The notes under the pieces are model-generated. The model was not told where the DNA came from, did not search any database, and worked only from the letters and a program-made list of their open reading frames with translations. Of a DNA stretch of 64,000 nt, positions 1 through 13,954 are shown piece after piece. The position numbers and the translations under genes were made by a program. Source of the DNA: Gammaproteobacteria bacterium (GTDB lineage Bacteria; Pseudomonadota; Gammaproteobacteria; JAUZRS01). The stretch spans positions 255,210 through 319,209 of the forward strand of contig JAUZSP010000007.1 of the NCBI GenBank assembly GCA_030949385.1, in the 5' to 3' direction. Every line of letters begins with the position of its first letter. Position 1 is the first letter of the stretch.

Positions 1-105
1 AGGTTCGTCCGGTTCAGGCGCTTGATGGACTGCGCGCAGCGACGGCCAGCAAGGGGATGGACATCCGCAGAAGCGATGCAGCAGGCGCGGAGCGCCTGCT
101 GCATC
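1..105 (-). repeat. 150-bp interstitial repeat, copy 1 (cut by window edge)
   Basis: This is the truncated left-most copy of a repeat found four times in the first 5.4 kb. It keeps the distal part of the 120-bp inverted-repeat-bounded core, with the inner terminus at 63-75 carrying one change (AGCG instead of ACCG), and the 31-nt hairpin at 75-105 (arms GATGCAGCAGGCGC and its complement). It lies downstream of the minus-strand restriction gene, beyond the attC-like palindrome at 106-191. It is slightly more diverged than the other three copies. Confidence 0.9.
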
Positions 106-191
106 GCCCGCATCACTTGACCGTAAAAAGGGGCGTTTTTTTTGCATCGCAAAAAAATGACGCTTTTTACGGTCAAGTGATGCGTTTGTTA
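106..191 (-). repeat. attC-like palindrome following the restriction gene
   Basis: Perfect 22-bp arms at 109-130 and 163-184 enclose an A/T-rich loop. On the minus strand the site opens with TAACAA (186-191), whose TAA is also the stop codon of the restriction gene. It ends in GCGGGCG directly against the 150-bp repeat. A TAACAA start and a GCGGGCG end are what integron attC sites such as the Vibrio VCR show up to the crossover G, where TTA would normally follow. The reading as attC is an inference from layout and motif. The palindrome could also act as a terminator. Confidence 0.55.
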
Positions 192-974
192 GGGCTGAAC
201 TAAGTTATAAAGAATGCCTTCGATTTCAGCACGAATCTTTTTTTGATTTTTCTTGAAAAATTCTTCTAAATCAAAACCCACAATATCTTTAAAAAATGAA
301 TACGTGCATTCCTTATTGTTTCCATTCATTATCCCAGAAAGAATTAGTATTTGTGAGCCTGCATAACGACTTCTAATTGTTTCATTAAGTTGATTGCTCA
401 TCACCATAACTACGGGGAGATAATCTTCGTTATAAGCTCTTACGGCATTTCGCAAATCAGCATTTTGCCTTTTTGAATCTGCACTTTTATAACCTTGACG
501 CACCTCGAAAACAGCCCCCTTTATTCCAGCTCGGTTGTTGTTCAAGGTGGACAAGCTTTCTTTGCACCAATTATTAATTATAGAAATTCGTGCCTTGTCT
601 TTTAAATGGTTAGTATCAATCCTAGCATCTAAAGAAAGCTTTGCTTTTTTCTCCTGAGGATTCGTATATTCATAAGACCAGTTAGCCTGATCTTCATTAA
701 TATTTAATGAGCTTTTTATTATTTCTCGAACCAGTCTTTCACATCCAATACCTAGCTGGCGGTAAAAACTAGTCATACCACCTGCGGCTTTATGTGCAGA
801 ATACATATAGTCAGAATCTAGTCCTACCCATGAATAAAGTGGGTCACTACCATACAATGCTCTAAACTCAGAAAGTGAGACCCCATTTTTTTTCTTAGTC
901 CCAAATACTGGTTTGTAGTCCGCGCACTTTTTTATTGGGTCTGTAAATATTTTTATTAAATCAGCATCTGTCAT
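189..974 (-). CDS. Probable type II restriction endonuclease
   Basis: The gene follows a DNA cytosine methyltransferase gene by one base (TAA A ATG), so it is very likely the endonuclease of a restriction-modification pair. The ATG at 974 is chosen because it has an AGGAAAAG ribosome-binding site; an upstream alternative start at 1022 would overlap the methyltransferase by 47 bp. The protein is about 261 residues. It holds a conserved-looking block FEVRQGYKSADSKRQNAD in its middle, in which the acidic and lysine residues could be a PD-(D/E)xK-type centre. I recall a similar block in ApaLI-like enzymes, but this is weak and the recognition site cannot be read here. The gene is AT-rich compared with the chromosome to the right. 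Confidence 0.6.
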   Translation of the reverse strand: MTDADLIKIFTDPIKKCADYKPVFGTKKKNGVSLSEFRALYGSDPLYSWVGLDSDYMYSAHKAAGGMTSFYRQLGIGCERLVREIIKSSLNINEDQANWSYEYTNPQEKKAKLSLDARIDTNHLKDKARISIINNWCKESLSTLNNNRAGIKGAVFEVRQGYKSADSKRQNADLRNAVRAYNEDYLPVVMVMSNQLNETIRSRYAGSQILILSGIMNGNNKECTYSFFKDIVGFDLEEFFKKNQKKIRAEIEGILYNLVQP

Positions 975-975
975 T

Positions 976-2061
976 TTATTCTTTTCCTGGACGAATTTTA
1001 TTGGTGCGTAAAAAACCTTCAATTTGTGTCATTATATGGTGACCTACAATAGGTGGTACTGCATTACCAATTTCCATGAAATTTTTCCCTGCGGCATGTG
1101 GGAACACAAATTCATCGGGAAACGATTGAAGTCTTGCAGTTTCTCTTACGGTAAGTCTTCTATCTAATTCATAATGGAAGTGAACACGCCCTTTGGGGTT
1201 TGCCCTAACAGTATAACCCAGCTCACCACGCTTAGATGTTTGATCTCCTTGCCCAGCACCTGCGGTTGCCTTAGTTGAAACAAAGTATTGGCTTTGATTT
1301 GATACTGTTTCATCTGTGATTTTTTCTAAACTTTGAAGTGCTTCATCAATAGGTACAATTTTAAAAACATGAGTTGGTGTTGGCTGTATAGGAGGAGTCT
1401 TTATAGTTAGATCATTCCTAAATCCAACAAGAAAGATTCGGGTTCTGCTTTGAGGAAGGCCGAAATCAGGGCAATATACTTGCCACACTGAAAAATCATA
1501 ACCACACTCCCTAAAATCTTTTAGAATTTTTTCAACAATTTCGCCATTATGTAGAGATAAAAGGAATGGCACATTTTCACCAATAACCACTTTTGGCTGA
1601 TGATGCTTCATATACCCAACCATTACTTTGTATAGCTTTCCTCTTTTGCCTTCAAGACCTTTTTTTGGTCCACATGAGGAAAAATCTTGGCACGGAAACC
1701 CTCCTGTAAGAATATCAACATAAGGCATCAAAGATGGATCCATTTCTACTAAGTCACAACAAGATATATTTTCCGAAATGTTTAGTTTATATGTTTCACA
1801 TGCTCGCTCATCAATTTCATAGGCTTGCTTTAATTCAAATGGTAATTTTGGATAGTAATTATCCAGAAAGGTAAACCCTCCTTCTGCTCCTAGATCAAAG
1901 CCGCCACACCCTGTAAACATACTAGCAACTGACCATTTTATTCTATAGTTTTTATCATCTTTTCTTCTAGCTAAAACATTAGGGTTTTTTTTAAAGCCGA
2001 ATTCATATTCAGGCATTCTTCTAAGTGCTTTTCTTTTGGGAAGCCCGCTTTTTGGTCTCAA
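976..2061 (-). CDS. DNA (cytosine-5-)-methyltransferase
   Basis: This enzyme transfers a methyl group from S-adenosylmethionine to C5 of cytosine and should protect host DNA from the adjacent nuclease. All landmark motifs are visible in order: MFTGCGGFDLG (motif I, SAM binding), GGFPCQDFS (motif IV, catalytic Cys), GENVPFLL (motif VI), PQSRTRIFLVG (motif VIII), RETARLQSFP (motif IX) and IGNAVPP (motif X). The length of about 361 residues is normal. The TTG start at 2061 has an AAGAG upstream; an ATG at 2016 is an alternative and would remove only a basic leader. The gene is first in a two-gene operon read leftward from the 150-bp repeat at 2135-2284, so its promoter must lie in 2062-2140 or in the repeat. 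Confidence 0.95.
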   Translation of the reverse strand: MRPKSGLPKRKALRRMPEYEFGFKKNPNVLARRKDDKNYRIKWSVASMFTGCGGFDLGAEGGFTFLDNYYPKLPFELKQAYEIDERACETYKLNISENISCCDLVEMDPSLMPYVDILTGGFPCQDFSSCGPKKGLEGKRGKLYKVMVGYMKHHQPKVVIGENVPFLLSLHNGEIVEKILKDFRECGYDFSVWQVYCPDFGLPQSRTRIFLVGFRNDLTIKTPPIQPTPTHVFKIVPIDEALQSLEKITDETVSNQSQYFVSTKATAGAGQGDQTSKRGELGYTVRANPKGRVHFHYELDRRLTVRETARLQSFPDEFVFPHAAGKNFMEIGNAVPPIVGHHIMTQIEGFLRTNKIRPGKE

Positions 2062-2134
2062 TTTCTATTCTCTTAATTCTATTGAATGATAAGTTATATT
2101 TTACTACAGGATGTGGATTTTTACTGAGCTCTAA

Positions 2135-2284
2135 CGGTTCTGCGGATAACCGGCGCTCCGTTGAAAATTTATTTTCATAAGGTTCGTCCGGTTCAGGCGC
2201 TTGATGGACTGCGCGCAGCGACGGCCAGCAAGAGGATGGACATCCGCAGAACCGATGCAGTAGGCGCGGAGCGCCTGCTGCATC
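2135..2284 (-). repeat. 150-bp interstitial repeat, copy 2
   Basis: A complete copy. The 120-bp core (2135-2254) is bounded by perfect 13-bp inverted termini, CGGTTCTGCGGAT and its complement, and is followed by a 31-nt hairpin (2254-2284) with arms GATGCAG(T/C)AGGCGC. An internal palindrome GAAAATAAATTTTC also occurs in each full copy. On the minus strand the unit ends ...AACCG and is followed by TTA, as at copies 3 and 4. A reading frame of about 60 codons through it is conserved only because the copies are nearly identical. Confidence 0.93.
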
Positions 2285-2398
2285 GTTTGAGACAACCTGC
2301 CCGCCGTGCAGCTACCGATAAACTTTATAAACGGCTATTCTCTTGAATCTACAAGAAAAAACGCCGACGAGTTGCGGGTCAGGTTAATTGACTTGTTA
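2285..2398 (-). repeat. attC-like site following the small membrane-protein gene
   Basis: On the minus strand the site begins TAACAAGTCAATTAACCTG, with the TAA at 2398-2396 being the stop codon of the preceding gene, and ends GGTTGTCTCAAACG against the 150-bp repeat. The inner arms AACCTGACCCGC (2374-2385) and AACCTGCCCGC (2294-2304) pair with one unpaired extra base on one side. Such an extrahelical base is a hallmark of folded attC sites. The outer right arm CTCAAACG resembles the R' side of ordinary attC sites, CTCAAGCG followed by TTA. Confidence 0.55.
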
Positions 2399-2637
2399 TC
2401 CTTTTTCTTCATAATTTTCTGACGTTTTTTTCTTAGGGCTTCTTCTGCTCAGATAAATTCCTCCACCAATTGCTAACCCAGCAAGAACTATACTTACTCC
2501 ATAAATCGTGGCGATTTTCTCCTCGGATTCACGGTCTCGGAAACTTTTTTCTGACGCTAAATTTACAGATAGAATAACAAGGAATAACAAGGAATAACAA
2601 GGAATAACAAGGCCAGTATAATCGATTTTATTTTCAT
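2396..2637 (-). CDS. Small membrane/secreted protein, frame interrupted by a 10-bp tandem repeat
   Basis: A strong ribosome-binding site (GGAGG, 7 nt before ATG at 2637) starts a typical signal peptide, MKIKSIILALLFLVI. The sequence then enters four tandem copies of a 10-bp unit (GGAATAACAA on the plus strand, 2571-2610). With four copies the frame closes at a TAA (2565-2563) after 24 codons. The downstream frame (2590-2396) encodes an intact protein with a second hydrophobic stretch (IATIYGVSIVLAGLAIGGGIYL) and a basic, charged tail. Two or five copies would join both halves into one protein of about 70-80 residues. The gene is therefore either a fresh frameshift or a slipped-strand switch now in the off state. 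No function is recognised. Confidence 0.55.
2571..2610. repeat. Four 10-bp tandem repeats inside a signal-peptide coding region
   Basis: The unit [A/G]GAATAACAA occurs four times head to tail, the first copy with A in place of G. Because 10 is not a multiple of three, gain or loss of a unit moves the downstream frame. In-frame copy numbers are 2 and 5; four copies put a stop codon just after the repeat. Confidence 0.95.
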
Positions 2638-2659
2638 AAATTTTCCTCCGAAAGTAATG

Positions 2660-3259
2660 TTATTTAGTTTCAAAAGACCTGCCATACTTCACAGCAGATT
2701 TTCTTACTTTTTCCAGATCAAGAAGAAGATCTTCGAAAAATTTTATTCCATCTTCTCCTTTGTATTTTAATGCAAGATATGATCTGTTTTCTGTGAATGA
2801 TGGATCTGTAGGGTATCGTAACGCCTCGTATAATTTGTTTACTGTGAGGTTATTCATTTTGAGAAAGTCACTTAGTAAAGAAGGAAGTTGTCCAAGATGC
2901 GTATATTTTTTCAGAAAATTACAAATATCTTCTTCTTTTTGGTTGTCTTTAATAAACTCAGCACTAAGTCCTTCTATTGAGTGTTTTGCCTTTAATTAAA
3001 AACTATTGTCAAATTGCATCAAACCCTTTAGGAATAGCTCCAGTCCATGATAGAAATTAAATAAAACAGGGATGATTACTTGGTGGTCACTCCATGCTGT
3101 TTTTTTCTCATATTCTTCAATGGTTGCTTCATCATCTGATACAACTATCCATTCATTTTTTGACAAAATTATCTCTTGCAATGAATTTTGGACAAGTGAA
3201 AAGAATTGTAGAGATATTGTTAAAAATGATATTGCTGTGACGTATTCTTCTTTTTTCAT
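2660..3259 (-). pseudogene. HEPN-like protein interrupted by an in-frame stop
   Basis: From ATG 3259 (MKKEEYVTAISFLTIS...) the frame runs 87 codons to a TAA at 2998-2996 and continues in the same frame, without any shift, for 111 more codons to 2660. The residues around the stop (FNFYHGLELFLKGLMQF, stop, then KHSIEGL) match the layout of HEPN-like helical proteins, where such a helix is followed by a His-containing segment. This suggests one protein of about 198 residues split by a single ochre codon. HEPN proteins are often ribonucleases or toxin partners, but no R-x4-6-H catalytic motif is clear here. It shares its module with the small membrane protein downstream. A separate start at 2857 could make a 65-residue fragment. 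Confidence 0.55.
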
Positions 3260-3287
3260 ATTTTCTCGACCTCTTTGCAGAGGATAA

Positions 3288-3437
3288 CGGTTCTGCGGAT
3301 AACCGGCGCGCCGTTGAAAATTTATTTTCATAAGGCTCGTCCGGTTCAGGCGCTTGATGGACTGCGCGCAGCGTCGGCCAGCAAGGGGATGGACATCCGC
3401 AGAACCGATGCAGTAGGCGCGGAGCGCCTGCTGCATC
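3288..3437 (-). repeat. 150-bp interstitial repeat, copy 3
   Basis: A complete copy with 13-bp inverted termini at 3288-3300 and 3395-3407 and the hairpin at 3407-3437. It differs from copies 2 and 4 at only a few bases, for example GGCGCGCC for GGCGCTCC. On the minus strand it is followed by TTATCC and then the HEPN-like gene. Confidence 0.93.
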
Positions 3438-3544
3438 GCCTTGCTAACTTGCAGCTAACTCAGCCCAGTTTTTGTGTAATAATGAGCGATAGCGAATACA
3501 CAAAAGCTGGGCTGAGTTAGCTGTCAATGTTGAGCAATTTGTTA
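3438..3544 (-). repeat. attC-like palindrome following the GTPase pair
   Basis: On the minus strand the site opens TAACAAATTGC (TAACAA at 3544-3539), eight bases after the stop of the second GTPase gene, and closes GTTAGCAAGGCG against the 150-bp repeat. The two arms, TTGCTcAACaTTGaCAGC and its partner, pair over almost 30 bases with exactly three unpaired bases, all on one arm. This asymmetric bulging is how IntI recognises the bottom strand of attC. It is the best attC candidate of the four. Confidence 0.6.
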
Positions 3545-3551
3545 TGTTTTT

Positions 3552-4238
3552 TTAATTCATCATTAAATTTCTTTTTTTACTTGGCATATTATCAATTAAT
3601 AAATCAAGTAAAAGATCAATATTATAGCCATGCTCAGCTGAATAATAGATTGGTTTTATAATATTAACTCCTGTTGCTTCTTTCACTCTATTTTGAATAG
3701 AATCTACTTGAGCCTCTAAAAAATCTTTCAATTTTTTCATGGGTTTATTATTATCATAATCCCAATGCCTACCTTTCATTGCCATATCAGCTTGATTTAC
3801 AGCAACAAGTACTCTTTTTTTCTGAAAATTAGGAATAATTACTTCATTCAATAATTTATAGCTTGTTCCCATATCCCGATTAGAGCCTTCAATTATAATT
3901 AATACCATATCTATAAAGCCATGTTGCTTATCATCTACGGAGTAATCTTTATAAAGTAATTTAATTATATTTTTAGAGTGTTCACGGTCTTTTTCTATGC
4001 CATCCCCCAATCCTGGAGTATCCCATAAGCGGAAAGAACCATTTAAACAATAACTTGTTAAAGCCATCGTTTCAGGCTCAACACCTTTGCCAACTTTTGC
4101 AACTTCTTTTTGAAAAATACTATTTAAAGTTGTGGATTTTCCAGCCCCTGTAACACCAGTAACCATTACATCTAATGGATTAATCCCTATAATATTTAAT
4201 TTAGTATCTAAATCAGATTTTCTGTAATTTCTAAACAT
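3552..4238 (-). CDS. P-loop GTPase, second of a tandem pair
   Basis: The protein is a small GTP-binding protein of the Era/YfjP-like type. The P-loop GVTGAGKST lies near residue 30, followed by a switch region, the DTPGLGDG motif (G3) and NQADMA as the G4 specificity motif. It is about 228 residues and has no membrane anchor. ATG 4238 is preferred, four bases past the stop of the upstream gene, so the two are translationally coupled; a TTG at 4250 would overlap. It is clearly homologous to its partner (shared VAKVGKGVEPETM and RVKEATGVNI...PIYYSAE), so the pair arose by duplication. Function is unknown; accessory GTPases of this kind occur in prophages and defence islands. Confidence 0.8.
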   Translation of the reverse strand: MFRNYRKSDLDTKLNIIGINPLDVMVTGVTGAGKSTTLNSIFQKEVAKVGKGVEPETMALTSYCLNGSFRLWDTPGLGDGIEKDREHSKNIIKLLYKDYSVDDKQHGFIDMVLIIIEGSNRDMGTSYKLLNEVIIPNFQKKRVLVAVNQADMAMKGRHWDYDNNKPMKKLKDFLEAQVDSIQNRVKEATGVNIIKPIYYSAEHGYNIDLLLDLLIDNMPSKKRNLMMN

Positions 4239-4239
4239 C

Positions 4240-5223
4240 CTACCACCCAAATAAACTTTTCATACCACCCCATACTGCACCAGCTACAGACCCGACTGCT
4301 CGACCAATTGTTTCTCCAGCACTACCAAAAACACTACCAATTGTTCCACCTATATCAGCACCTTTAGTTGCATTTTCTTTGATACTCTCTAGAAAACTTT
4401 GTTTAATTTCTTTATTATAATCCTTAATTTCATCGCTATCTTCCCACATCTCTTTATCATCTGAAGTTGTATTCACATAAGCTAGCCGTTTTTCTGATGG
4501 CGTGTTTTTTACGATAAAATAGAGTAATTTAGATAAATTATAAGGTCGTTGAGCTTCTCCTTCCTCTTTAAATCCTGCTGAATAATAAATAGGCTCTATA
4601 TTTACATCTGTTGCTTCTTGCACTCTATTTTTTACAGATTTAACTTTTTCTTCTAAAAATTCGACTAATTTAGGCTCTGGTTTATTTTTTTCAAAATCCC
4701 AGTACCTACCTTTCATCGCTACATCAGCTTGGTTAATAGCAATTAAAACCCTGTCTTTCGCATTTTTACCAAGGTTAGGAATAATTACAGAATTAATTAA
4801 CTCGTAAGATGTACCTAAATCTCGACTCCCCCCATCAAGAATAATTAACACCAAATCAATTAATGGATCATTATTTTCATCCAGCTCATTAAGTTTTGAA
4901 ATAATCCCCTTTGAATGTTTTATATCTTTTTCTTTACCATCACCTAAACCAGGACTATCCCATAAAATTAAATTATCTAGCTCATGTTTTTTAATTTCCA
5001 TTGTTTCTGGGTCTACACCAATTCCAACTTTAGCAACATTCATATTAAACATTGCATTTATTGTTGAACTTTTACCACAGCCAGTAGCCCCAGTTATCAT
5101 GAGGTTCACTTTTTTATTCTTTAAATTTAAGATGTTTTCAAAAAGTTTTTTCTTTGTGGCTTCATCTAAATTTGATGAATTGACATCATTTTCCATGTCT
5201 TTAAAAATATTGCTTTCTTTCAA
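4240..5223 (-). CDS. P-loop GTPase with glycine-rich amphipathic tail
   Basis: First gene of the GTPase pair, about 327 residues. The GTP-binding motifs are visible: GATGCGKSS (P-loop, about residue 45), WDSPGLGDG (G3) and NQADVA (G4). The C-terminal 45 residues form a Gly/Ala/Val-rich segment (GADIGGTIGSVFGSAGETIG and on to a final LFGW) that looks able to insert into or lie on a membrane; the partner protein lacks it. The TTG start at 5223 is chosen because AAGGAG lies six bases before it. The pair would fit one soluble and one membrane-seeking GTPase acting together, which is inference. It begins about 40 bp from repeat copy 4. Confidence 0.8.
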   Translation of the reverse strand: MKESNIFKDMENDVNSSNLDEATKKKLFENILNLKNKKVNLMITGATGCGKSSTINAMFNMNVAKVGIGVDPETMEIKKHELDNLILWDSPGLGDGKEKDIKHSKGIISKLNELDENNDPLIDLVLIILDGGSRDLGTSYELINSVIIPNLGKNAKDRVLIAINQADVAMKGRYWDFEKNKPEPKLVEFLEEKVKSVKNRVQEATDVNIEPIYYSAGFKEEGEAQRPYNLSKLLYFIVKNTPSEKRLAYVNTTSDDKEMWEDSDEIKDYNKEIKQSFLESIKENATKGADIGGTIGSVFGSAGETIGRAVGSVAGAVWGGMKSLFGW

Positions 5224-5262
5224 TTTAGTCTCCTTAACCTTTTATTAATCTACGAAACATAA

Positions 5263-5412
5263 CGGTTCTGCGGATAACCGGCGCTCCGTTGAAAATTTAT
5301 TTTCATAAGGCTCGTCCGGTTCAGGCGCTTGATGGACTGCGCGCAGCGTCGGCCAGCAAGGGGATGGACATCCGCAGAACCGATGCAGTAGGCGCGGAGC
5401 GCCTGCTGCATC
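5263..5412 (-). repeat. 150-bp interstitial repeat, copy 4 (right end of array)
   Basis: A complete copy with inverted termini at 5263-5275 and 5370-5382 and the hairpin at 5382-5412. It lies upstream of the first GTPase gene, where an integron attI site would be expected, but no integrase gene follows to the right. Confidence 0.93.
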
Positions 5413-10660: not shown

Positions 10661-10743
10661 TAACAACAGGTGCAAAAGTTCACGCTCAAGGAACCGTTAT
10701 TGCTCAGTGTGTGGAAAGAACGCCAACTAAGAGCCTTAACAAC

Positions 10744-12240
10744 ATGAAAAAAAACCGTCGCATTACCCCCCTAACCCTGCTTTTCTGTTTCAGTCTCAGC
10801 TTGAGTCTGTTGTTGCTGGGCACAGCTCAAGCGAATAACAACCCATTTCAAAAAGTCATTCTAGATCACGAAGGCAATGCCTATGTGACGGATATTAACC
10901 GCTCTCGCATTGTAAAAATAGACGCCATCAACCAAAGTCAGCAGATCATCGCCGGTAACAACGTGGCGGGCTTTGAGGGCGATGGCGGACCGGCCACCGA
11001 AGCCAGCCTCTATGTGCCTGCCAGCCTTGTCTTTGATCTCTACGGCAATCTTTACATCGCCGATGCAGGCAACTCACGGATTCGCAAAGTGGATGCCGCC
11101 ACGGGCATCATCAGCACCGTTGCCGGTAACGGCCAATTTGGTTTCAATGGCGATCATCAATACGCCCTCGATGCCCAGCTCAACATGCCCTACGACCTGC
11201 TCATTGACAACCAAAACAACCTCTACATTGCCGACAGCAACAACCACCGCATTCGCAAGTTCAATCTCGATAGCGGTGTCATCACCACCGTGGCAGGCAA
11301 CGGCAACGCCGGTTTCAGCGGTGACGGTGGTTTAGCCACAGAAGCCAGCCTCAACTGGCCCGACGGCATTGCACTGGATGGAATGGGCAACCTCTACATC
11401 TCCGATGCCCTCAATCATCGGATTCGCAAAGTGGATGCAGCCACCGGCCTGATTCAGAGCCTCGATCAAGATCAAGCAGAACGGGTCAGCACTGAAACAG
11501 AAAGCACCTTTCAACTGCATTCAAAACAAAAATCTCCCCCACACACATCATCCTTTAAACACTCAACTGACAATGAAATTCAGCTTGTCCACTCTGCCTA
11601 CAGTCAAACAACAGAAGCCACACAGACCTTCTACGCCTCTAACAGCCTGAACAGTCGCAGCCGAAAATTGGGGGTCACGGGCGACGATTTACCACCCAGC
11701 GGTGAGGTACAGATCAATAACGGCAGTGAAATCACCAACAGCCGTGCGGTGATTTTAAACCTACCTTGCCGTGATGATACCAGTGGTTGTGCCGAGGTAC
11801 GCTTCAGCCATGACGAGCAACATTGGGGCGATTGGCAAACACACGATGACAATCTACTTTGGCGTTTGGCAGATAAAGAAGGCCAACAGACCCTCTACGC
11901 CCAATTTAAAGATCGTGCGGGCAATCTCTCTTCCAGCTCGCAGGCCAGCATCACGCTGGACCGTATGCCACCGCCAAACCCTTTTTTAGTCCAACCGGCC
12001 AATGGCTGGCTGAGTGGCAAGGGAAAAACCCGCATCGAGGGCTTTGCTGAACCTCACAGCACCATCGAGGTCTCTCTGGACAACCGCCCTTTGGCGCTGG
12101 TGAGCAGCGCCGTGGATGGCCATTGGTCTCTCGATACGGAACTGGATGATGCAGAACAGCACCACGTCACGGTGGTGGTCATTGATGTGGCAGGCAACCT
12201 CAACTCCGGCGCACTGCAATTGGCTGCAATGCAACCTTAA
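10744..12240 (+). CDS. Secreted NHL-repeat protein with Ig-like domains, paralogue 1
   Basis: A signal peptide with a long hydrophobic core (ITPLTLLFCFSLSLSLLLLG, then AQA) precedes four NHL repeats, each with a phrase like GNLYIADAGNSRIRKVDA, which should form one beta-propeller (residues about 35-245). After a Ser/Thr-rich linker come two Ig-like modules, the last with GKTRIEGFAEPHSTIEVSL and VVVIDVAGN. Such exported propellers bind proteins, sugars or surfaces; no enzyme motif is visible. ATG 10744 is chosen because it opens the signal peptide; an upstream frame from 10711 would mask it. The gene after it is a close paralogue, and both carry the same upstream element. Confidence 0.85.
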   Translation: MKKNRRITPLTLLFCFSLSLSLLLLGTAQANNNPFQKVILDHEGNAYVTDINRSRIVKIDAINQSQQIIAGNNVAGFEGDGGPATEASLYVPASLVFDLYGNLYIADAGNSRIRKVDAATGIISTVAGNGQFGFNGDHQYALDAQLNMPYDLLIDNQNNLYIADSNNHRIRKFNLDSGVITTVAGNGNAGFSGDGGLATEASLNWPDGIALDGMGNLYISDALNHRIRKVDAATGLIQSLDQDQAERVSTETESTFQLHSKQKSPPHTSSFKHSTDNEIQLVHSAYSQTTEATQTFYASNSLNSRSRKLGVTGDDLPPSGEVQINNGSEITNSRAVILNLPCRDDTSGCAEVRFSHDEQHWGDWQTHDDNLLWRLADKEGQQTLYAQFKDRAGNLSSSSQASITLDRMPPPNPFLVQPANGWLSGKGKTRIEGFAEPHSTIEVSLDNRPLALVSSAVDGHWSLDTELDDAEQHHVTVVVIDVAGNLNSGALQLAAMQP

Positions 12241-12404: not shown

Positions 12405-12502
12405 AATCGACTTAATCTGGGTCAACCTTGAAGATGCGACGTATTCGTTACCGTGCATGGAAGGCACACCAAACAACATCAAAAACACAAAGAATTCAGA
12501 TC

Positions 12503-13954
12503 ATGCCAAAAATAAATTTCCTAAAAAGTCTTCTCCTGCTTATCGGCCTTAGCCTCACCTTCTCACTGCACGCCGTAGAGTACACCCCCTTTCAAAAAGT
12601 GATTCTTGACTATGAAGGCAACGCTTACATCACCGACATCACCCGCTCACAGATTGTAAAAATCAGCGCGCTCGACGGCACCGCCGAAGTGATCGCAGGT
12701 AAGGGTCAAGTGGGGTTTTCCGGCGACGGTGGTCTGGCCACTGATGCGTGCCTCTATGTTCCCGCTAGCCTTGCCTTTGATCTCCACGGCAACCTTTACA
12801 TCGCCGATGCAGGCAACTCGCGGATTCGAAAAGTGGACGCGGCCACGGGCATCATCAGCACCGTCGCCGGTAACGGCCAATTTGGTTTCAATGGCGATCA
12901 TCAATACGCCCTCGACACTCAACTCAACATGCCCTATGACCTGCTGATCGACGGCCAAAATCTTTACATCGCCGACAGCAACAACCATCGCATTCGCAAA
13001 TTCAATCTCGACAGCGGCATCATCACCACCGTAGCGGGCAACGGCAACGCCGGTTTCAGCGGTGACGGCGGTCTGGCCACAGAAGCCAGCCTCAACTGGC
13101 CCGACGGCATCTCACTGGATGCCATGGGCAATCTCTACATCTCCGATGCCCTCAATCATCGCATTCGTAAAGTCAACGCCGCCACCGGTCTGATCGAGAG
13201 CTTGAATGAGGAGCAAAGCGAGCAAGCCCGTCGTGAGAGCCATTCACAAACCCAATCTGCCGAATCAGATACGGCCGACACCTCCACCTCCTCCCTCTCA
13301 AAGAATGGAACTTATTCTGCTTATTTGACACTTTCTCCCGACTTCAAAGGCGGTAAACAGACGTTTTACGCCTCAAACAGCCTCAACAGCCGCAGCCTAA
13401 AATTAGGTGCAAGCGGAGATCGTGCGCCGCCCTCTGGCACAGTACGCATCAATCACGGCAGCGAGATAACCAATGATCGCTCCGTGCTGTTAACGCTTAC
13501 GTGCCACGACGACCGCAGCGGCTGCGCCGAAGTACGCATCAGCTCTGACGAGCAACAGTGGAGCGACTGGCTACCCCATCATGGCAGCCTACTGTGGCAG
13601 CTGGAAGATCAAGAAGGTGAACAGTCCCTTTATGTGCAGTTTAAAGATCACGCGGGCAAAAGCGGTGCCAGCGCACAGACGCGCATTACGCTGGATCGCA
13701 TCCCTCCCGCCCCCACTGTGTTGCTTCAGTCCGCAGACAGCGGGTTGATCGGCAAAGGGAAAAGCCGCATCAAAGGCGTTGCCGAGCCACACAGCAGCAT
13801 CGAAATTTTACTCGACAACCGCCCTCTGGCCTTGATCAGCAGCTCCGCAGACGGTCGCTGGTCTCTCAACACAGAGCTGAGTAATGAACAGTGGCATCAA
13901 CTTACCGTGGTGGTGATTGATCAAGCAGGCAATCGCAGTACCTCAGAAGGTTGA
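12503..13954 (+). CDS. Secreted NHL-repeat protein with Ig-like domains, paralogue 2
   Basis: A tandem duplicate of the preceding gene with the same plan: signal peptide (FLKSLLLLIGLSLTFSLHA), four NHL repeats in one propeller, linker, and two Ig-like modules. Repeats 2 to 4 are almost identical to those of paralogue 1, while the N-terminal repeat, linker and Ig parts have diverged, so the propeller is under constraint or has been homogenised. Start at ATG 12503 opens the signal peptide; a frame open from 12428 would add 25 residues. The protein ends slightly earlier than its paralogue. crcB begins 65 bp downstream. Confidence 0.85.
   Translation: MPKINFLKSLLLLIGLSLTFSLHAVEYTPFQKVILDYEGNAYITDITRSQIVKISALDGTAEVIAGKGQVGFSGDGGLATDACLYVPASLAFDLHGNLYIADAGNSRIRKVDAATGIISTVAGNGQFGFNGDHQYALDTQLNMPYDLLIDGQNLYIADSNNHRIRKFNLDSGIITTVAGNGNAGFSGDGGLATEASLNWPDGISLDAMGNLYISDALNHRIRKVNAATGLIESLNEEQSEQARRESHSQTQSAESDTADTSTSSLSKNGTYSAYLTLSPDFKGGKQTFYASNSLNSRSLKLGASGDRAPPSGTVRINHGSEITNDRSVLLTLTCHDDRSGCAEVRISSDEQQWSDWLPHHGSLLWQLEDQEGEQSLYVQFKDHAGKSGASAQTRITLDRIPPAPTVLLQSADSGLIGKGKSRIKGVAEPHSSIEILLDNRPLALISSSADGRWSLNTELSNEQWHQLTVVVIDQAGNRSTSEG

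What the first reader, a model, noticed from the sequence alone, without database searches (positions are those of the whole stretch)
3552..5223. Coupled GTPase pair, one soluble and one with a membrane-seeking tail, as a cassette
Two homologous GTPases overlap or nearly overlap and only the first has a Gly/Ala-rich amphipathic C-terminus. The module sits beside a restriction-modification module in an accessory array. A two-GTPase unit with asymmetric membrane targeting could be an undescribed defence or stress module.
Basis: inference. Interest (0 to 1): 0.58.

Follow-up and report, generated by a model that had tools for sequence, protein, structure and literature searches.

The report
Mobile GTPase pair linked to defence
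Two adjacent, related GTPase genes, only the first ending in a glycine-rich probable membrane tail, travel together between bacteria and often sit among antiviral genes, including type III CRISPR systems, so they may be an undescribed antiviral module.

Summary
On the minus strand A (4240-5223, 327 aa) and B (3552-4238, 228 aa) are GTPases, 54% identical, one base apart; A alone has a C-terminal Gly/Ala tail. The pair fills one 1975-bp integron-type cassette (3288-5262) beside a restriction-modification cassette, and is 31% GC where the rest of the window is 52%.

The pair recurs: I found 11 A+B loci, A first in 10, four of them on plasmids. None of 9 full-length B proteins (8 distinct) has the tail. 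In Vibrionaceae lone A outnumbers pairs (13 versus 6 loci); the lone copies share DUF2787/YfjJ-type mobile-island neighbours, not housekeeping operons.

Seven of ten distinct pair loci lie among defence genes; four lie inside or beside type III CRISPR-Cas loci. Pair-bearing Vibrionaceae are enriched for the CARF protein Cas_NE0113 (4 of 6 versus 37 of 323, p=0.003); lone-A genomes are not (1 of 11). The window's genome has a type III-B locus on another contig.

Best reading: a mobile, defence-linked module in which A reaches the membrane through its tail and B is its soluble partner. Function is inferred. Beyond generic GTPase-domain models, only a PHROG family of unknown function matches A end to end.

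The parts
4240..5223 (-). GTPase A (327 aa, TTG start behind AAGGAG), G domain plus C-terminal Gly/Ala-rich tail
   Evidence: end-to-end match to phrog_16468 (8.4e-88)
4243..4377 (-). glycine-zipper-like tail of A (residues 283-327), ending FGW
   Evidence: recurs in A relatives, absent from 9 of 9 full-length B rows (8 distinct)
3552..4238 (-). GTPase B (228 aa from ATG; 232 aa from TTG at 4250), G domain only
3288..5262 (-). integron-type gene cassette carrying the pair (boundary at the G of each R' box)
   Evidence: 1975-nt repeat spacing
5257..5263 (-). R' box GTTATGT at the 5' end of the pair cassette
3541..3547 (-). R'' box ACATAAC, exact complement of the pair cassette's own R'
3282..3547 (-). 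attC-like recombination site of the pair cassette (266 nt, R'' to R'), strong single-strand fold
   Evidence: fold of 3281-3552, z -11.4
3284..3437 (-). conserved 154-nt 3' part of attC, copy 3
5259..5412 (-). conserved 154-nt 3' part of attC, copy 4 (array edge)
2131..2284 (-). conserved 154-nt 3' part of attC, copy 2
1..119 (-). conserved part of attC, copy 1, cut by the window edge
2135..3287 (-). neighbouring cassette with small ORFs of unknown function, one frame interrupted by an in-frame stop
189..1022 (-). type II restriction enzyme of the next cassette
   Evidence: PADLOC REase_II 4.5e-75
976..2061 (-). C5-cytosine methyltransferase of the same cassette
   Evidence: PF00145 4.7e-64; PADLOC MTase_II 3e-75

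Best explanation
A and B are an old duplicated pair of TRAFAC-type GTPases, mostly inherited together, that moves as one unit on an integron cassette, plasmids and islands and serves defence against mobile elements. Proposed mechanism: A and B are made together and pair through their G domains in a GTP-dependent way, as Toc34, IRG and GIMAP G domains do. B, which has no tail, holds or triggers A. On an infection signal A puts its glycine-zipper tail into the inner membrane and oligomerises, halting growth or compromising the membrane before phage release. In some hosts the signal probably comes from, or acts beside, type III CRISPR/CARF nucleotide signalling. Shown: the pair, its recurrence, the tail asymmetry, cassette carriage, defence and type III context. 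Inferred: heterodimer, membrane insertion, trigger, anti-phage outcome.
For: Eleven A+B loci (G752 and G753 are near-copies), A then B in ten. B rows group apart from A rows in the tree, except that the A of G853 is unresolved; a single origin of B is not rejected (AU p 0.559). Tail in A, in none of 9 full-length B rows. Defence genes at 7 of 10 distinct pair loci: window (RM), Aliivibrio L031 (hsdM, hsdS, McrBC, CARF, locus assignment partly by reading), V. alginolyticus L036 (inside a type I RM operon), and type III CRISPR at L034, L076, L081, L093. With the same queries type III genes were found at 0 of 14 lone-A loci, 0 of 7 distant-tandem loci, 0 of 14 control regions and 0 of 20 other Cas_NE0113 loci. 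Cas_NE0113 co-occurrence: Vibrionaceae 4/6 vs 37/323, p 0.0026; phylum sample 3/3 vs 20/395, p 1.7e-4, or 2/2, p 0.0029 without the window's genome; lone A 1/11 vs 40/318, p 1.0. Of the other six attC-flanked cassettes in this genome, four carry PADLOC-type genes. Fold neighbours: Toc34, IRG, GIMAP7, LeoA, a bacterial dynamin pair.
Against: No functional data. Acinetobacter, Comamonas and G752/G753 pairs show no defence gene within four genes on either side. Lone A copies in mobile islands show that A can exist without B. In the window's genome the type III locus is on another contig. Cas_NE0113 is not CRISPR-specific: none of 20 other loci had type III genes. Model confidence is moderate (pLDDT 66.8 and 66.3) and the tail is below 50. 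A/B distance correlation over 8 pairs is weak (r 0.54, 1085 of 20000 permutations as high). The p values treat genomes as independent, but G835, G853 and G880 share a homologous type III operon and G752/G753 are near-copies.
Confidence: 0.45

Rival explanations
1. The GTPase serves the mobile element itself (replication, maintenance or competition of CP4-57-like islands), and pairs merely hitch-hike in accessory regions where defence genes also gather.
For: Nine lone-A loci: 72 neighbours include 15 DUF2787, 9 YagK_YfjJ_C, 6 RadC, 2 phage integrases and 1 AlpA; the two commonest neighbour clusters occur at all 14 lone-A loci. The G752/G753 pair also sits in such an island. End-to-end match to a PHROG family.
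Against: Pairs, unlike lone A, associate with type III CRISPR and Cas_NE0113; the window pair is in an integron-type cassette array whose cassettes show no such island genes.
Confidence: 0.25
2. Toxin-antitoxin-like unit: A is a membrane-acting toxin and B, lacking the tail, neutralises it by heterodimerisation; loss of B or phage interference frees A.
For: Two small adjacent genes one base apart, one with a membrane-type tail, on a compact cassette.
Against: 13 lone-A loci in Vibrionaceae persist without an adjacent B; B keeps G1 and G3 motifs in 8 of 10 rows.
Confidence: 0.15
3. Host physiology: a membrane-stress or biogenesis GTPase pair with no role in conflict.
For: Distant tandem homologues occur in 15 Vibrionaceae genomes, 13 with near-consecutive handles that probably form one genus.
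Against: That clade is far from A and B, and the G3/G4 patterns were found in 0 of its 14 rows. The A/B family itself is patchy: 1 of 369 genomes of the window's class, its own; low GC and mobile contexts.
Confidence: 0.1
4. Counter-defence carried by mobile elements against CRISPR or restriction.
For: Lone A sits in mobile islands and plasmids.
Against: Pairs lie within or beside the defence loci themselves.
Confidence: 0.05

Closest known systems
phrog_16468 (PHROGs v4, unknown function)
   Same: A matches it end to end, residues 1-326 on 1-327 of 328, 8.4e-88; B matches its G-domain part, 9e-41
   Different: No function is given and the listing says nothing of a B partner; the phage records and the viral-contig scan gave no homologue
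Immunity-related GTPases (IRG, Pfam IIGP)
   Same: G-domain similarity (3.8e-7; PDB 1tq4, 1.4e-4) and fold neighbour
   Different: Sequence match covers only residues 6-95 of A; here two genes, one with a glycine-zipper tail
Toc34/Toc159, GIMAP and AIG1 GTPases
   Same: AIG1 match (6.6e-7 for B), Toc34 among the best Foldseek neighbours of both, GIMAP7 of A; membrane-anchored G domains that dimerise (recalled, and PDB titles)
   Different: Eukaryotic; identity about 14-21% in those listings; A scores just under the Pfam AIG1 cut-off
Eleos LeoA/LeoBC (system name recalled) and paired bacterial dynamins (5owv)
   Same: Bacterial GTPases, some paired, that act at membranes; weak G-domain matches to PADLOC LeoBC and LeoA; LeoA 4aur and the dynamin pair 5owv among fold neighbours of A
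   Different: Much longer proteins; here only 69-87 residues around the P-loop match in the best stretch
DO-GTPases (Kaur et al. 2020, PMC7159879)
   Same: Paralogous TRAFAC GTPases, two copies in 38% of systems, in conflict systems (section 27 read)
   Different: They have a conserved Walker B Glu, often zinc ribbons, and a GAP1 partner; here the G3 is DSPG/DTPG/DSAG; no DO-GTPase model among the listed Pfam hits
Integron cassettes as defence 'biobanks' (passages of PMC12409362)
   Same: attC-flanked cassettes rich in defence genes
   Different: No integrase over the curated cut-off in this genome; two-gene cassette; long attC

Membership tests
TRAFAC-type P-loop GTPase | G1 GxxxxGKS/T, G3 DxxG, G4 NQxD/NKxD | tested here: met
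   Both proteins; PF01926 above its cut-off for both
AIG1/GIMAP | Pfam PF04548 above gathering score | tested here: inconclusive
   B 29.3 bits vs 27 (met), A 26.8 vs 27 (just not met)
IRG (IIGP) | Match over PF05049 including the helical domain | tested here: not met
   Best stretch: A on positions 4-98 of 375, B on 29-98
Eleos (LeoA/LeoBC) | Full-length LeoA and LeoBC homologues | tested here: not met
   Best stretches of 68-88 positions of 559-601
DO-GTPase system | Conserved Glu in Walker B | tested here: not met
   The DxPG/DxAG pattern, with Asp, was found in all 24 A rows other than the split G938 copy and in 8 of 10 B rows (not in G752/G753); definition from PMC7159879 section 27
DO-GTPase system | GAP1 partner downstream | not tested
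   No GAP1 profile was searched by name; none among the 25 of 61 Pfam families listed for pair neighbours
Integron cassette (CALIN) | R''/R' complementarity at cassette ends | tested here: met
   5 of 6 perfect, 1 of 6 with one mismatch
Integron cassette (CALIN) | Integron integrase in the genome | tested here: not met
   No match over the TIGR02249 cut-off, genome 98% complete; a CALIN lacks one nearby by definition
Integron cassette (CALIN) | Recombination by an integron integrase | not testable with these tools
   needs an excision assay
Type III CRISPR ancillary effector | Encoded in type III loci more than by chance | tested here: met
   4 of 10 distinct pair loci against 0 of 55 comparison loci; small and partly related numbers
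Type III CRISPR ancillary effector | Own cyclic-nucleotide-binding (CARF/SAVED) domain | tested here: not met
   No CARF/SAVED family among the listed hits to A or B
Type III CRISPR ancillary effector | Activation by a Cas10 product | not testable with these tools
   needs biochemistry

The most novel reading that the evidence does not exclude
The pair is a bacterial IRG/Toc-like two-GTPase membrane effector that type III CRISPR and CARF signalling can recruit: without a CARF domain of its own, it is switched by a neighbouring CARF protein or by GTP state, and its glycine-zipper tail disrupts the membrane. It would be a GTPase class of type III effector, also carried alone on an integron cassette and able to serve a type III system elsewhere in the genome.
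Probability: 0.18. Interest if true: 0.85.

Novelty: new variant of a known kind. Interest (0 to 1): 0.6.

Why it matters
A paralogous GTPase pair with a conserved one-sided tail, found in type III CRISPR loci, restriction islands and an integron-type array, is a small, testable candidate defence module. If it works with type III signalling it would add GTPases to the effector list; a published survey of type III effectors (PMC11229360; main text searched for terms, passages seen) has no occurrence of 'GTPase' in its main text and reports 133 loci with no known effector or credible candidate. It would also bear on how old the link is between IRG/GIMAP-like GTPases and immunity.

Tried and rejected
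Rejected: overlap of the two genes as a frame-sharing feature (the TTG start explains it). Rejected: a simple amphipathic helix as the defining tail feature (moments similar in A and B). Rejected: phage origin (phage records and the viral-contig scan gave none, and 44 at E up to 10 only weak unrelated hits). Rejected: membership of Eleos, IRG or DO-GTPase (see membership test). Rejected: Cas_NE0113 as a proxy for CRISPR in general (20 of 20 other Vibrionaceae loci examined had no type III gene).

Led nowhere: E. coli genomes; P. toruni-like type III genes on other plasmids gave only distant ones and viral contigs none; the genome-contig scan confirmed one relative, Aliivibrio. The A-B heterodimer could not be modelled (single-chain tool, both jobs used). 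Papers 10.1080/15476286.2018.1483685, 10.1073/pnas.1803440115 and 10.1093/nar/gkaa635, which might list GTPases near type III loci, are not held. PADLOC-DB here dates from 2023, so newer defence models were not tested. Novelty is limited to the searches named.

Rows dropped before counts: the control scan used 72 of 112 genes (9 of 14 regions); the lone-A scan used 9 of 14 loci, near-duplicates left out; the pair-neighbour scan used 9 loci, leaving out the window (its neighbours are) and G753. The 20 other Cas_NE0113 loci were taken from the 37 pair-free genomes in the listing, mostly from its top, not at random.

Full report
WHAT IS THERE. The window is G000:C7:255210-319209 of a 2.87-Mb, 10-contig genome, 98% complete. 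That its class is Gammaproteobacteria is my inference: Vibrionaceae genomes appear in its 'same class' set with identical match coordinates. On the minus strand lie A (4240-5223, 327 aa, TTG start behind AAGGAG) and B (3552-4238, 228 aa from its ATG, one base after the stop of A). They are 54% identical and both keep G1, G3 (DSPG/DTPG) and an NQAD-type G4. B ends just after the G domain. A continues for about 80 residues, ending in GADIGGTIGSVFGSAGETIGRAVGSVAGAVWGGMKSLFGW.

THE TAIL. In the last 45 residues A has 40% Gly/Ala and 10 small-xxx-small pairs (z 2.2 over shuffles); B has 9% and none. The pattern and a terminal aromatic recur in most close A relatives in that call; exceptions are a short tail in V. 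alginolyticus and a valine-rich amphipathic one in G853. None of the 9 full-length B rows (8 distinct, as G752 and G753 are near-copies) has it; the G880 B is frame-broken and not counted. Weak glycine-zipper Pfam matches (E 0.02 and 0.03, below cut-off) agree, but the predicted model has pLDDT under 50 there, so membrane insertion is inference.

THE CASSETTE. Copies of a 154-nt repeat flank the pair and its neighbours. Genome-wide 14 matches, some partial, form small clusters on C7, C1 (two), C3 and C8. For six complete cassettes, the seven bases after each repeat (R', G^TTRRRY type) were compared with the sequence before the next repeat: the exact complement was found in five and with one mismatch in the sixth, 89-117 nt before the conserved part. 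A given 7-mer would appear in such a 330-nt stretch about 2% of the time (my estimate). This identifies integron-type cassettes; the pair cassette is 3288-5262. No match passes the integron-integrase cut-off, so this is a cluster of attC-like sites without integrase. The site, 266 nt from R'' to R', looks long (against attC sizes I recall) and folds strongly (z -11.4). The pair is 31% GC against 52% for window 5600-64000. Of the other six attC-flanked cassettes (the six minus the pair, plus one on C3 with a partial attC), four carry PADLOC-type genes: two restriction-modification sets, one DUF262/HEC-06/Orf5-like gene, one PDC-S26-like gene. A further methyltransferase follows the last C7 repeat.

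RECURRENCE. Close A homologues: 7 of the 24 matching plasmid records, three of them Proteus; Aliivibrio fischeri; 1 of 369 genomes of the class at E<=1e-20, the window's own; 3 of 398 in the phylum sample at E<=1e-15; and 17 of 329 Vibrionaceae (hits over 370 bits, plus the split copy of G938), or 32 of 329 with a distant tandem clade of 15 genomes. I found 11 A+B loci: window; Aliivibrio L031 (G369); plasmids of Acinetobacter L032, Comamonas L033, P. toruni L034 (G835) and V. alginolyticus L036; G505 L076 (frame-broken); G880 L081 (B frame-broken); G752 L090 and G753 L091; G853 L093 (order B-A). G469 carries A cut by a contig end. In Vibrionaceae 6 of 19 close-A loci are pairs and 13 are lone. 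No homologue was found in phage records or viral contigs, although A matches phrog_16468 end to end.

HISTORY. In a 52-row tree B proteins group apart from A proteins, with modest support at the base and the A of G853 unresolved. On 21 rows one B (V. alginolyticus, a very long branch) strays, but a single B clade is not rejected (AU p 0.559). Two host groupings (window with Aliivibrio; Acinetobacter, Comamonas and Photobacterium) appear in the A half, and the second also in the B half; win_B and Aliivibrio B are nearest neighbours there but not on a starred branch. A and B distances correlate at r 0.88 for five pairs (2 of 120 permutations as high) but only 0.54 for all eight (1085 of 20000). 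Reading: one old duplication, mostly co-inherited, with B lost in the lone-A lineage.

NEIGHBOURHOODS. Ten distinct pair loci (G752/G753 as one): seven have defence genes nearby. Window: type II RM. L031: hsdM, hsdS, McrBC, then A, B and a CARF Cas_NE0113 protein (placement by reading). L036: A and B inside a type I RM operon, with AbiEii. L034: within a type III CRISPR-Cas locus with cas6, RAMPs, csx16, cas1, cas2, csm6. L076: beside Cmr1, Cmr2/Cas10, Cmr3, Cmr4. L081: Csx16, cas1, cas2, Cas_NE0113, RAMPs. L093: TIGR03986 and other RAMPs, Cas_NE0113. L032, L033 and L090 show none within four genes each side. In 65 neighbours of nine pair loci PADLOC matches 263 families, led by CARF5/Csx1 in 4 members, the rest of those listed being type I RM and type IIG models that overlap one another. 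In 72 control genes it matches 12 families (mad3, RtcR, mad8, mad2, AriA, PDC-S48, ZorB, an ATPase-Toprim). In 72 neighbours of lone A it matches 27, led by WYL regulators in 3 members, with one type I specificity subunit and a HicA-like protein. Lone A neighbours are chiefly DUF2787 (15), YagK_YfjJ_C (9) and RadC (6), with one Mrr_cat; the two commonest neighbour clusters occur at all 14 lone-A loci. Type III genes, sought with 15 query proteins, were found at L034, L076, L081 and L093 and at none of 14 lone-A loci, 7 distant-tandem loci, 14 control regions or 20 other Cas_NE0113 loci (L034 fully only in the wider stretch).

CO-OCCURRENCE. Cas_NE0113 is present in 41 of 329 Vibrionaceae: 4 of 6 pair genomes, all within about 5 kb of the pair, against 37 of 323 others (p 0.0026); 1 of 11 lone-A genomes, on another contig (p 1.0). 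In the phylum sample it is in 23 of 398, including all three A-positive genomes (p 1.7e-4; p 0.0029 without the window's genome). These p values treat genomes as independent. The plasmid records of Acinetobacter, Comamonas, Proteus and V. alginolyticus have none; their hosts were not searched. The window's genome has Cas_NE0113 and Cas10 (976 aa) on C3 with Cmr1, Cmr3, Cmr4 homologues, genes I read as Cas6 and Cmr6, and a CRISPR array of eight repeats. Cas_NE0113 itself is broader than CRISPR: by reading, some of the 20 other loci carry type I RM, ZorB-like or vWA genes.

WHAT IT RESEMBLES. Sequence: MMR_HSR1, AIG1, IIGP; only P-loop regions of LeoBC/LeoA; IRG and Toc34 in the PDB for A. Models of moderate confidence place both near Toc34 and IRG, and A also near GIMAP7, LeoA and a bacterial dynamin pair. 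These GTPases work as G-domain dimers, several at membranes (recalled, and PDB titles). Kaur et al. (PMC7159879, section 27 read) described another double-GTPase family in conflict systems, so paired GTPases in defence are not new in kind; this family differs in the Walker B residue.

MECHANISM AND VERDICT. Literature: the listings and passages of PMC11229360, PMC11014256, PMC12409362, PMC11090510, PMC7159879 and PMC9024848 showed no description of this pair; three likely papers were not held.

Noticed in passing
G000:C3 about 518.6-530 kb (L151:6579-18026): The window's genome carries a type III-B CRISPR locus with Cas_NE0113 and an eight-repeat array with short, uneven spacing (54-75 nt start to start), unlinked to the pair.
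   Followed up: partly
window 3282-3547, 2129-2401, 1-194: attC-like sites look unusually long (266 and 273 nt for the two complete ones): a cassette-specific stretch, with a long inverted repeat in two cases, precedes a near-identical 154-nt element.
   Followed up: partly
window 2660-3436: Neighbouring cassette: the frame of the 146-aa ORF meets an in-frame stop near 2996 and, by eye, continues open to 2660; no family match above cut-off.
   Followed up: no
L034:15195-18918 (P. toruni plasmid): A second GTPase cluster (GTPase, small ORF, dynamin family, GTPase) sits in the same type III CRISPR region as the A-B pair.
   Followed up: no
L095-L101: Distant tandem pairs of homologues in 15 Vibrionaceae genomes; G3 and G4 patterns were found in 0 of 14 rows, as if partly pseudo-GTPases.
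   Followed up: partly
L157-L176: All 20 pair-free Cas_NE0113 loci examined in Vibrionaceae lack type III genes within the 17-kb stretch; by reading, some lie beside type I RM and ZorB-like or vWA genes.
   Followed up: partly
window 10711-12240 and 12428-13954: Two adjacent, very similar NHL-repeat-like proteins, by eye a tandem duplication.
   Followed up: no
window 2572-2611: Short 10-bp tandem repeat (GAATAACAAG) at the start of the small ORF 2396-2590.
   Followed up: no
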